Origin: Pseudanabaena mucicola FACHB-723 | Lineage (GTDB): Bacteria; Cyanobacteriota; Cyanobacteriia; Pseudanabaenales; Pseudanabaenaceae | Assembly: GCF_014696385.1 (NCBI RefSeq) | Contig: NZ_JACJQB010000016.1 | Span: forward strand, 1 to 64,000 | Length of the DNA: 64,000 nt | Direction of reading: 5' to 3' | Part shown: piece by piece, positions 59,513-63,126 of the stretch | Layout of the letters: each line of letters opens with the position of its first letter | How positions within the stretch are numbered: the first letter of the stretch is position 1 | The notes under the pieces: generated by a model | The model's input: the letters and a program-made list of their open reading frames with translations, nothing else | The model's database searches: none | What the model was told of the DNA's origin: nothing | Made by a program: the position numbers and the translations under genes

Positions 59513-59965
59513 CTAGTAAACAGCGATTACTTTACGGCCAATATTCGCCAAAAGATATTGAGCTTCAATTGCTGAACGATTTTTTACAACTGCTACTACT
59601 AAAAATTGACCATTTTTTACTTGGACTTCAAATTTTGCCGCAGAGTGAATATCAATTCCAAATTCCATTAAAATTTCAGGCAAACCTCCATCTATAGTGA
59701 TATATTCCCAATTAATGGAATGTTCGTACTCTTGATAATTGCGAGTAATAATCACAATTTGAGAGGAAAGTAAACCCTGTCGTTGCAATTCCAATGAAGC
59801 ATGTCTAGCTTCTTGACTAGAAGCAAAAGTATCTACCACCGTAAATATAGTTCCTGATTGAGATGATAGATCACTAGATGATAGATCACTATATGTTGTG
59901 TTCATCTTCTGCTTGCTTGCATACTTATTCAGTGACTTTGTACTAGTCGGGGCTTGAATCATCAT
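59513..59965 (-). CDS. General-stress YflT/GSP17M-like protein, copy 1
   Basis: The 150-residue protein has a low-complexity N-terminus (Ser/Asp rich, SDLSSSDLSS) then a single alpha/beta domain: TVVDTFASSQEARHASLELQRQG, IVIITRNYQEYEHSINWEYITIDGG, KNGQFLVVAVVKNR. It is homologous to the next gene upstream; the shared pattern fits the YflT/general-stress-protein 17M domain, but function is unknown. The ATG at 59965 follows GAGGAAA; an earlier in-frame ATG at 59998 is possible. Second gene in an operon ending with the SulP transporter. Confidence 0.72.
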   Translation of the reverse strand: MMIQAPTSTKSLNKYASKQKMNTTYSDLSSSDLSSQSGTIFTVVDTFASSQEARHASLELQRQGLLSSQIVIITRNYQEYEHSINWEYITIDGGLPEILMEFGIDIHSAAKFEVQVKNGQFLVVAVVKNRSAIEAQYLLANIGRKVIAVY

Positions 59966-60012
59966 CAGTTTTCCTCTGTCTGTAAGATCCCGTGGCAAAT
60001 TGCTACTGTCTT

Positions 60013-60055
60013 ATCCCAAAGCACAAAATGGCTAAGCCATTTTGTGCTTTGGGAT
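60013..60055. repeat. 21-bp perfect palindrome between stress genes
   Basis: 60013-60033 and 60035-60055 (ATCCCAAAGCACAAAATGG) are exact complements around one base. It lies between the two paralogous stress-protein genes and may attenuate the transcript or protect its 3' end. Confidence 0.85.
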
Positions 60056-60058
60056 TAT

Positions 60059-60544
60059 TTAGTCTGCTTGAAGGGAATGTCCAGATTTTTCTAGTACATG
60101 CTGCACTTGACTAGCTTCGCGATCGCTGCCAACTTCAATGATTAAGAACTTACCGTTGTCAATTGCTTCTACAAATGTGGCAATGGCATGTTCACTAATT
60201 CCCAACTTAGTTAAAGTGAGTTCCAAACCACCTTCTGCATTGATGTTTTCCCAGTTCATAATACTTTGAGGCTCTTTATAGTGTTTGGCAACAATAGAAA
60301 TATGAGCGACCCGCAATCCCTTCTGCTCTATTTGCAATACTGCCTGTTTCGCTTCTTCTTCAGAATCAAAGATGTCAACAACAGTTACTCTATTGGTTAA
60401 TTCTGATAGAGAGGACTCACCATCTATGTAAGTCATCTCTGGCTCAATCGCATAGTTATTTAGCAATCCTTCACTATCGACTGTATGCCCACCCGCCTTG
60501 TTAATTTCGTCGGGATATACAGTTTGATTTGTTGATGTAGTCAT
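60059..60544 (-). CDS. General-stress YflT/GSP17M-like protein, copy 2
   Basis: The 161-residue protein has a ~50-residue polar, acidic N-terminal region and a domain TVVDIFDSEEEAKQAVLQIEQKG, ISIVAKHYKEPQSIMNWENINAEGG, DNGKFLIIEVGSDREASQVQHVLE. The same core as the protein encoded just downstream makes them tandem paralogues, and 63529-63861 carries a shortened version. ATG 60544 has GGAGC at 7 bases. It is first in a transcript with its paralogue and the SulP transporter, which suggests they act together under stress (inference). Confidence 0.72.
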   Translation of the reverse strand: MTTSTNQTVYPDEINKAGGHTVDSEGLLNNYAIEPEMTYIDGESSLSELTNRVTVVDIFDSEEEAKQAVLQIEQKGLRVAHISIVAKHYKEPQSIMNWENINAEGGLELTLTKLGISEHAIATFVEAIDNGKFLIIEVGSDREASQVQHVLEKSGHSLQAD

Positions 60545-60665: not shown

Positions 60666-60802
60666 TAATGTTACGTGAAACCCTCATCCCCCAGCCCCTT
60701 CTCCCTAGGGAGAAGGGGAGCAAAACCAATATTTTCTTGTTCCCCTCGCCCTCTGGGAGAGGGGCTAGGGGTGAGGGCTGTAGAAACTTCTACGTAACAT
60801 CA
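60666..60802. mobile_element. MITE-like element with TAATGTTACGT ends
   Basis: Ends TAATGTTACGTG (60666-60677) and CTACGTAACATCA (60790-60802) are inverted and match those of the element at 12205-12368. The interior is a long palindrome of CCCTCATCCCCCAGCCCC and its complement, similar to the element at 51628. A small frame inside (60668-60928) is an artefact of the repeat. Confidence 0.75.
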
Positions 60803-60810
60803 ATTATCTA

Positions 60811-62070
60811 TTATTCCCATTCGCGCTTTTCGAGTTCTTGTTGTGGTAGTAACAAAGTTGCTTCTATTTCTTCGCGAATACTAGTGGTAACTTCGCAATT
60901 GCTATTGAGGCAATCAAGCAGCAGTTGATTGGCATCGTAATAATGTTGCAAAGCTTGTTCTTGAGAACTACTAAATTCCCACTTTTTGCCAATACTACGG
61001 TGGGATGCGATCGCAGCCTGTAACTTAGTTACCCAAGATGCATAATTTTTGTGGCACCAATTTTCAAAGCTTGCCTTTGTATGATTGGTATTGGGTAATT
61101 GATCACTGAGTTGCTGAAGTGATTTATGAAATCCAATATCAACGACAATCCCTAAAATATTACTCAGAGCCTCACTGCAAGCATGGACATAGGCAAAATC
61201 TTGACTATCTTGAATTAGAGATGTGCGTAATAGATCGTCGAGAGCTTCGTCTAAAAATTCACCCTGATCTAGGGCACAAGCTAAAGCAAGATTAGGGGCA
61301 AGATTGGGCGCACGGGTTAGTGCCAGATAAAAGGCTCGTCCTGTCGCAGATTTTGTTTCTAATGGATTCGATTTTGACTTTTGGCTAGCCCAAGCTAGAA
61401 AATCCTGTAGGTGTGGATCTTGAGAGACAAGACCATCGATTTGTTGCTTCATTAACTCTACCAAACCATCAGCACTGCGGAGCATACTTGATGTTAGTAA
61501 AAAGATCTCTCGCCAATGGGGATCGGTAATATGATTTACTAGCCCCTGTAGAGAATGCCCTAGGGCTTGGAGATTATGATTGGCAACAATCTTACGAGCT
61601 GTGAAATATTCTTGTAATGTCAGATAGGAGAATGAGAAGATGCCTCGCGCCCGCTCAGCTAAAATCCCATGTTGGGACTCAATCGCTTTTAATATACGTT
61701 CACTTGCCTGTTGAATTTCTTCAGGATCATCGCTTGCCTCGGGAAGGTTTGCCAAATAGTCACCGATATATTGCTCAACTACGCCTTGCTCAAAGAAATA
61801 CTGTCCTTGCTCAAAGGTGGCGGCGGCAATTTGGCTCAATAATTTGAGCTTTTGGGGTAGCAAAAATCCCCGATAGACTTGATCGCGTTCAATTCCTTCG
61901 GCTTCATCCCATTTACCGAGCAGTAAATCCATCCCTTGCTTATAAAATTCGGCTTGCTTAAGGGGAAATTTGCCTTGACGATGAAATATGGAACAGGCAA
62001 GATGCAGAAACAAGGGTGTGGTAATCATGCGGCGAAATCGCCAATTTTCTGGCAATTCCAGCTTTTTCAT
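60811..62070 (-). CDS. NACHT protein, C-terminal part (after internal stop)
   Basis: This 419-residue frame is in phase with, and continues, the NACHT domain gene upstream, beginning with ATG 62070 (MKKLELPENWRFRRMITTPLFLHLAC). It contains the winged-helix and helical parts typical of cyanobacterial NACHT proteins (WDEAEGIERDQVYRGFLLPQKLKLLSQIAAATFEQG, FSFSYLTLQEYFTARKIV). A long alpha-helical C-terminal region (~140-419) without repeats that I can name follows. With the upstream part and the 28-codon stretch between, it would make a single ~771-codon protein, interrupted by one TAG at 62155. It could be translated separately from its own ATG if transcribed. Confidence 0.82.
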   Translation of the reverse strand: MKKLELPENWRFRRMITTPLFLHLACSIFHRQGKFPLKQAEFYKQGMDLLLGKWDEAEGIERDQVYRGFLLPQKLKLLSQIAAATFEQGQYFFEQGVVEQYIGDYLANLPEASDDPEEIQQASERILKAIESQHGILAERARGIFSFSYLTLQEYFTARKIVANHNLQALGHSLQGLVNHITDPHWREIFLLTSSMLRSADGLVELMKQQIDGLVSQDPHLQDFLAWASQKSKSNPLETKSATGRAFYLALTRAPNLAPNLALACALDQGEFLDEALDDLLRTSLIQDSQDFAYVHACSEALSNILGIVVDIGFHKSLQQLSDQLPNTNHTKASFENWCHKNYASWVTKLQAAIASHRSIGKKWEFSSSQEQALQHYYDANQLLLDCLNSNCEVTTSIREEIEATLLLPQQELEKREWE

Positions 62071-62154
62071 AAATTCTGATGAATTTGCGACTCCCTCATC
62101 GGCATTGTAGCTAAAGGCAATAAACCATTTTTGTGAAAACCCAATAATTTGTTT

Positions 62155-62157
62155 CTA
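62155..62157 (-). other. In-frame TAG interrupting the NACHT gene
   Basis: Reading on, the frame gives KQIIGFSQKWFIAFSYNADEG before the ATG at 62070, with no other stop. CAG (Gln) to TAG is the smallest change that explains it. The codons on both sides look like normal protein. Confidence 0.85.
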
Positions 62158-63126
62158 GGTAAATGGCGCGATTTCTACATCTGTAAAACTTTGCAGAGAT
62201 AGCTTTTGTGAGGCAATGCGACAGGTTGCGACAAATTGGTTTTTGTGGTATTTGTCAGCAAACTGCCGAATTTCATTGATGACGACCTGTTTCTCTTCAT
62301 GGGGAACTTCATCCATACCATCAATTAAAAGTAAAATCCTGCCTGCTTGTAATAGCTTTTTGATGACTGAGAGTTGTGAAATGTCGGAAGTAAGAAATTC
62401 CTGATGGATAAATTCTAATAAGTCAATTTGATTGTTATCTCTGCGAGCTTTGGCAAAATCTCGCAGTTTGATAAAGATGGGGATTTGACTTTCCCCAAAC
62501 TGCTCACGATTACATTCAATGGCAAGATGTTTAAGAAATGTCGATTTCCCTGATCCCGGTTTGCCCAATACCCTGAGCTTGTTGTATTTGGCAACAGCCT
62601 GTATACCCGAAATTTGGCTTTCGACAATTTTGCCCAAGCCATAGCGATCGATATCTTCAGGGGTGAGACTATTGATCGCCGCAATTTCTAGCCATTGCTG
62701 ACTGGCGATCTGTTCTAGGATGTTGACATCAATATAAATCTGTTCAATTTTAATAGGACGATTCACATCCAATAACCGCAAGATCCCACATTGATGATTG
62801 ATTTTCTCGCGCCGTTTCGATCGCACTGTTTGCACAAGAATATCAATTCCTAATTCATTTAAATCATCATTTCCATCTTCAGTCCGATCGATGTATTCGA
62901 GGGGAGGATCAAGGGCAATTTCTCGCCAATCTAAATCTAATCTTGTACAAAGTTCAAAAAATGTATAACGTTCGATGGCTTGTCCTGCAAAGAAGCGCCA
63001 AATTGGTTGTCTAGTTTTGATTCCGACTTCATTGGCTAAGTATTCCTGAGTCCACCCTTTGAGAGCAAATTGCTGCTTAGCCTTTTTGATCCCTGATGGT
63101 GATGCCTTTAGAGATCGTTTTGCCAT
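62155..63126 (-). CDS. NACHT NTPase, N-terminal HTH and Walker domain
   Basis: The 323-residue N-terminal part has a helix-turn-helix-like N-terminus (~10-60: GIKKAKQQFALKGWTQEYLANEVGIK...RFFAGQAIERYTFFELC). An intermediate region leads to NACHT: Walker A GKPGSGKST (188-196), and Walker B with D269 and the acidic pair D272-E273 (LLLIDGMDEVP). Sensor-like TCR lies near residue 301. NACHT proteins of this cyanobacterial type act as signal-transducing NTPases; many bacterial NACHTs defend against phage. The frame ends at a TAG after DVEIAPFT, mid-domain. Whether the gene is a pseudogene, is truncated, or reads through is not decidable from sequence alone. Confidence 0.85.
   Translation of the reverse strand: MAKRSLKASPSGIKKAKQQFALKGWTQEYLANEVGIKTRQPIWRFFAGQAIERYTFFELCTRLDLDWREIALDPPLEYIDRTEDGNDDLNELGIDILVQTVRSKRREKINHQCGILRLLDVNRPIKIEQIYIDVNILEQIASQQWLEIAAINSLTPEDIDRYGLGKIVESQISGIQAVAKYNKLRVLGKPGSGKSTFLKHLAIECNREQFGESQIPIFIKLRDFAKARRDNNQIDLLEFIHQEFLTSDISQLSVIKKLLQAGRILLLIDGMDEVPHEEKQVVINEIRQFADKYHKNQFVATCRIASQKLSLQSFTDVEIAPFT

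What the first reader, a model, noticed from the sequence alone, without database searches (positions are those of the whole stretch)
60811..63126. NACHT immune-type gene interrupted by one TAG
The two halves are in the same frame, and the 28 codons between the TAG and the next ATG continue like a normal protein. One C-to-T change (CAG to TAG) accounts for the break. It may be a recently inactivated defence gene, a sequencing error, or a gene expressed as two polypeptides (the second with its own ATG).
Basis: seen in the sequence. Interest (0 to 1): 0.62.

Follow-up and report, generated by a model that had tools for sequence, protein, structure and literature searches.

The report
NACHT gene with recent nonsense mutation
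One cyanobacterium carries a copy of a widely conserved immune-type NACHT gene that a single stop codon cuts in two, while nearly all its relatives carry the gene intact; this looks like an ordinary, very recent gene breakage (or possibly a base error), not a new mechanism.

Summary
On the minus strand, 63126-60811 is a 771-codon NACHT gene with one in-frame TAG at 62157-62155 (codon 324). The window lies in a draft Pseudanabaena-type genome. Orthologues at 57-88% identity run straight through this point; six of the seven nearest have Gln there and the seventh has Glu. Of 104 orthologue places in 390 cyanobacterial genomes, only three carry an in-frame stop, each at a different codon. Both sides of our stop evolved under strong purifying selection on this lineage (dN/dS about 0.07 before it, 0.09-0.13 after it), so the stop is very young or an error. 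TAG is the ordinary stop of 11 of 44 window genes. None of the tRNAs detected in the genome reads TAG. No internal start after the stop has a Shine-Dalgarno at normal spacing. A recent nonsense inactivation is most likely; a base or assembly error cannot be excluded; two working polypeptides or readthrough have no support. The gene is a new member of a known kind. Outside the window, a fused helix-turn-helix/acetate-kinase gene with a conserved AUC/AUU start codon is more unusual than the finding itself.

The parts
60811..63126 (-). interrupted NACHT (STAND NTPase) gene, 771 codons read through
62155..62157 (-). in-frame TAG, codon 324
   Evidence: orthologues Q/E here
62158..63126 (-). first frame, 323 aa: N-terminal helix-turn-helix-like domain (about 1-81), linker, most of the NACHT NTPase with Walker A (188-196), Walker B (265-273) and R303
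   Evidence: motif positions read from the sequence and the invariant columns of A1
62884..63126 (-). N-terminal HTH-like domain (residues 1-81), shared with an acetate-kinase fusion protein elsewhere in the genome
   Evidence: model confident only here
60811..62154 (-). part behind the stop (codons 325-771 and TAA): end of NACHT, PLFL motif (371-374), winged-helix-type FSFSYLTLQEYFTA (497-510), NCH2 (666-761)
60811..62070 (-). second ATG-initiated frame, 419 aa; no Shine-Dalgarno at normal spacing
60059..60544 (-). downstream gene, 161 aa, YflT stress domain (PF11181); conserved next to the NACHT gene in the genus
59513..59998 (-). second 161-aa frame, a likely paralogue of the preceding gene; a second weaker copy also follows in several relatives

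Best explanation
It is a full-length cyanobacterial NACHT (STAND) NTPase gene, intact in nearly all relatives, that has very recently been cut by one nonsense mutation. The ribosome makes a 323-residue product with the HTH-like domain and most of the nucleotide-binding core, but without the end of the NACHT domain, the helical/winged-helix control region and the C-terminal NCH2 domain, so the switch protein is most likely non-functional. Shown: the stop, its uniqueness among the near orthologues, past purifying selection on both sides, no detected suppressor tRNA. Inferred: that the stop is real in the cell, that the truncated product is inactive, and that the intact protein is a phage-sensing switch like tested bacterial NACHT proteins.
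For: Read-through frame aligns over 771 aa to uninterrupted orthologues. Of 104 orthologue places at E<=1e-200, 101 have no in-frame stop. The homologous codon is CAA in six of the seven closest relatives and GAA in the seventh. Terminal-branch dN/dS is 0.067-0.073 before and 0.088-0.126 after the stop (three outgroup triplets), close to sister lineages at 0.03-0.14. No second lesion in 771 codons. TAG ends 11 of 44 genes in the window. The 39 tRNA matches in the genome, read with ARAGORN, show no CTA anticodon. Independent breaks of the same family elsewhere: TAG at codon 585 (G218) and 207 (G333), a frameshift in Nostoc MG11, and TAG at 334 in a paralogue (G008).
Against: One genome per species is held, so the base could not be confirmed in a second isolate or in reads. 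CAA is the codon in the nearest relatives, so TAG needs two changes from that state. A very young mutation and a sequencing or assembly error look the same in a sequence.
Confidence: 0.74

Rival explanations
1. The TAG is a sequencing, consensus or assembly error, or a minority variant of a mixed sample, and the gene is intact in the organism.
For: Only one lesion in 771 codons and purifying selection on both sides; draft assembly of 94 contigs; strong conservation of the intact gene.
Against: Substitution errors in modern consensus assemblies are rare (general knowledge), completeness is 99.6% with 0.06% contamination, and the same family is broken independently by single stops in other genomes.
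Confidence: 0.19
2. The gene works as two polypeptides: a 323-aa HTH/NTPase part and a 419-aa C-terminal part restarted at 62070.
For: An in-frame ATG lies 28 codons behind the stop.
Against: That Met is not conserved. No Shine-Dalgarno at normal spacing before any start codon in codons 325-420. The cut falls inside the NACHT domain, whose Pfam match spans the stop, and a restart at codon 353 would omit conserved residues K333, W334, F335. No intact homologue in the genus ends there.
Confidence: 0.03
3. The TAG is read through as Gln, constitutively or by a suppressor tRNA.
For: Gln is the usual residue here, and the other two broken orthologues also have TAG at Gln columns.
Against: No CTA-anticodon tRNA found. 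TAG is an ordinary terminal stop here. Among paralogous NACHT genes TGA and TAA interruptions are also reported by the search, so TAG is not exclusive. C-to-T at Gln codons is a common route to nonsense (established knowledge).
Confidence: 0.04

Closest known systems
Bacterial NACHT (bNACHT) NLR-related proteins, tested examples bNACHT02/11/12/25/32 (PMC12169576)
   Same: Central NACHT NTPase of the STAND class with a C-terminal helical region; like clade 14 members, no recognisable effector enzyme.
   Different: N-terminal HTH-like domain and C-terminal NCH2 rather than NCH1 or SNaCT; no defence assay; this copy is cut at codon 324. NCBIfam's antiphage EruA is only a weak partial match far below its cut-off (28 against 1000 bits).
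PF22727 (NCH2) NACHT proteins of cyanobacteria
   Same: Strong NCH2 match at 666-761 (114 bits against cut-off 27) and NACHT 56 bits against 26.7; orthologues in 92 of 390 cyanobacterial genomes.
   Different: Nothing in the domain plan; only the stop codon.
Effector-associated domain (EAD) systems (PMC7159879)
   Same: The short helical N-terminal domain occurs on a second, unrelated protein of the same genome, as EADs do.
   Different: That protein carries the C-terminal half of acetate kinase, not a known effector; membership in a published EAD family was not tested; the two genes do not always co-occur.

Membership tests
NACHT STAND NTPase (PF05729) | NACHT profile match above the gathering score | tested here: met
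   56.5 bits against 26.7, residues 186-336
NACHT STAND NTPase (PF05729) | Walker A, Walker B and downstream control motifs in one polypeptide | tested here: not met
   All present in the read-through frame, but the PLFL and winged-helix motifs lie behind the TAG in this copy; met in the orthologues, so this copy is a disrupted member
NCH2-containing NACHT proteins (PF22727) | C-terminal NCH2 domain | tested here: met
   115.7 bits in the second frame; separated from the N-terminus by the TAG
Antiphage bNACHT proteins | Protection against phage | not testable with these tools
   No experiment; only a weak PADLOC candidate match PDC-S60, 50 bits, partial
Nonsense pseudogene | Interrupted relative to intact orthologues | tested here: met
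Nonsense pseudogene | Relaxed selection after the break | tested here: inconclusive
   dN/dS 0.09-0.13 behind the stop against 0.07 before it, confidence intervals overlap: too young to show
Recoded TAG (suppressor tRNA) | tRNA with anticodon CTA in the genome | tested here: not met
   own genome only, possible phage-borne tRNAs not covered
Split gene with internal start | Conserved start codon with ribosome binding site behind the stop | tested here: not met

The most novel reading that the evidence does not exclude
The in-frame TAG at a Gln codon acts as a tripwire: the full NACHT protein is made only when a phage that reads TAG as Gln brings a suppressor tRNA. All three interrupted orthologues have TAG at Gln columns. 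Not excluded, but three cases are few, C-to-T at Gln is a common route to nonsense, and TGA and TAA breaks appear in paralogues.
Probability: 0.015. Interest if true: 0.85.

Novelty: new member of a known kind. Interest (0 to 1): 0.13.

Why it matters
As it stands it is a routine example of the turnover of immune-type genes in cyanobacteria: a gene kept for a long time under selection and then broken by one base in one lineage. It matters for annotation (the two frames should be called one disrupted gene). The orthologue set shows that this NACHT gene is widespread and, in Pseudanabaena, usually sits beside YflT stress-domain genes, in two species on plasmids. That intact pair, not the broken copy, is what a laboratory could usefully test.

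Tried and rejected
TAG exclusivity: four single-stop NACHT genes were all TAG at first sight, but a wider search of the paralogous family listed TGA (G143) and TAA (G135) cases too (their positions were not checked), and C-to-T routes to TAG are about as numerous as the others in these genes. Many 'stops inside' proved to be terminal stops read through by the alignment. A stop 10 codons further on in a paralogue of G008 looked like a hot spot, but the other two lie at codons 207 and 585, so no cluster. A control with the neighbouring SulP gene (46 places) showed no clear nonsense break (four listed stops look terminal, not checked one by one) and one gene split in two; too small to say that NACHT genes break more often. 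The AlphaFold model was poor (mean pLDDT 46), so no fold search was made. No solved structure matched by sequence.

Full report
What is there. The finding is on the minus strand. From ATG at 63126 to TAA at 60811 there are 771 codons with one internal stop, TAG at 62157-62155, codon 324. Read through, the protein has an N-terminal helix-turn-helix-like domain (about residues 1-81), a NACHT NTPase (Pfam 186-336, 56.5 bits) and a C-terminal NCH2 domain (666-761, 114 bits). The stop falls inside the Pfam NACHT match. The first frame keeps Walker A (188-196), Walker B (265-273) and R303. The part behind the stop holds conserved K333-W334-F335, the PLFL motif (371-374), the FSFSYLTLQEYFTA stretch (497-510) and NCH2.

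Relatives. The window is contig 8 of a 3.96-Mb, 94-contig genome. Named relatives of the gene place it in or near Pseudanabaena. In a search of 58 relatives, 49 genomes hold a homologue; the orthologues taken for comparison, 57-88% identical, are uninterrupted, and at codon 324 the seven nearest have Gln (CAA, six) or Glu (GAA, one). Across 390 cyanobacterial genomes, 92 hold an orthologue at E<=1e-200. Of the 104 places listed (my count of the table), three have an in-frame stop: ours, G218 (TAG at the column of codon 585) and G333 (TAG at 207). Near relatives of G218 and G333 mostly have Gln at those columns. A frameshift interrupts the Nostoc MG11 copy, and a TAG at the column of codon 334 (a Trp codon in its relatives) interrupts a 40%-identical paralogue in G008. 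In the genus no intact homologue ends at the place of our stop. So the gene family is broken now and then, at different places, in a few per cent of the copies.

Age of the stop. Using triplets of relatives, the lineage leading to our copy has dN/dS 0.067-0.073 before the stop and 0.088-0.126 behind it, with overlapping bootstrap intervals (0.03-0.14 and 0.05-0.22). Sister lineages give 0.03-0.14. Pairwise values agree. Both parts were therefore under purifying selection for nearly all of this lineage's history. If the stop is real it is very recent; a base error would look the same.

Could it be read or restarted? TAG is the normal terminal stop of 11 of 44 genes in the window. The 39 tRNA matches in the genome, read with ARAGORN, include Gln (TTG) and no CTA anticodon. 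Behind the stop, the in-frame ATG at codon 353 is Ile, Leu or Val in about half of the orthologues, and none of the next start codons has a Shine-Dalgarno at normal spacing. Both alternatives are thus unsupported, though only an experiment excludes them.

Is TAG special? At first all single-stop cases were TAG, and the three orthologue cases sit at Gln columns, which would fit a tripwire sprung by phages that read TAG as Gln. A search with the paralogous NACHT gene lists TGA and TAA cases as well, and the routes by C-to-T change to TAG, TAA and TGA are comparable in number in most of these genes. I treat this as an unsupported speculation and give it 1.5%.

Surroundings. The NACHT gene is followed on the same strand by a 161-aa YflT-domain gene (60544-60059) and a second 161-aa frame. 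Homologues of the first follow the NACHT gene by about 150-960 bases in at least a dozen relatives. In Pseudanabaena ABRG5-3 and P. galeata the orthologue is on plasmids. The first 81 residues recur at about 70% identity in another protein of the same genome.

How it most likely works. By analogy with tested bacterial NACHT proteins (PMC12169576), the intact protein would be a nucleotide-driven switch whose C-terminal part senses a trigger and whose N-terminal domain recruits or forms an output; this is inference. The truncated product lacks the control and sensor regions and is most likely inactive.

Verdict. An ordinary, confirmed observation: a conserved NACHT gene recently cut by a nonsense codon, or less likely a base error. 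Interest is low.

Noticed in passing
G000 contig C5, about 74561-75517, minus strand (L177, L059; outside the window); orthologues L169-L176, L198-L202, L204-L206: A protein that fuses the same HTH-like domain to the C-terminal half of acetate kinase (PF00871, positions 173-391) lacks an ATG, GTG or TTG start at its conserved N-terminus: nearly all sampled orthologues have a conserved ATC/ATT (once ATA) codon just behind a GGAG-type Shine-Dalgarno, in most with an in-frame stop a few codons upstream. A conserved AUH start like that of infC would be unusual. In our genome it lies just behind a recA-like gene, with a full acetate kinase gene about 2 kb away.
   Followed up: partly
window 59513-60544: YflT stress-domain genes conserved directly behind the NACHT gene across Pseudanabaena: a possible uncharacterised NACHT-YflT gene pair.
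   Followed up: partly
window about 60680-60808: A palindromic CCCTCATCCCCCAGCCCC...GGGGCTAGGGGTGAGGG repeat sits just behind the NACHT stop codon; copies lie at unrelated places in relatives.
   Followed up: no
L166 (G218), L167 (G333), L168 (G008), L078 (Nostoc sp. MG11): Other NACHT genes of this family with a single TAG or a frameshift as the only lesion seen; the three orthologue stops are all TAG at Gln columns.
   Followed up: yes
NZ_AP017563.1 and NZ_CP112876.1 (L110, L111): The closest orthologues lie on a 135-kb and a 217-kb plasmid, beside genes (GGDEF, CsbD, YggT, sterol desaturase) of which several have counterparts on our contig; contig C8 may be plasmid-derived or may have exchanged with such plasmids.
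   Followed up: no
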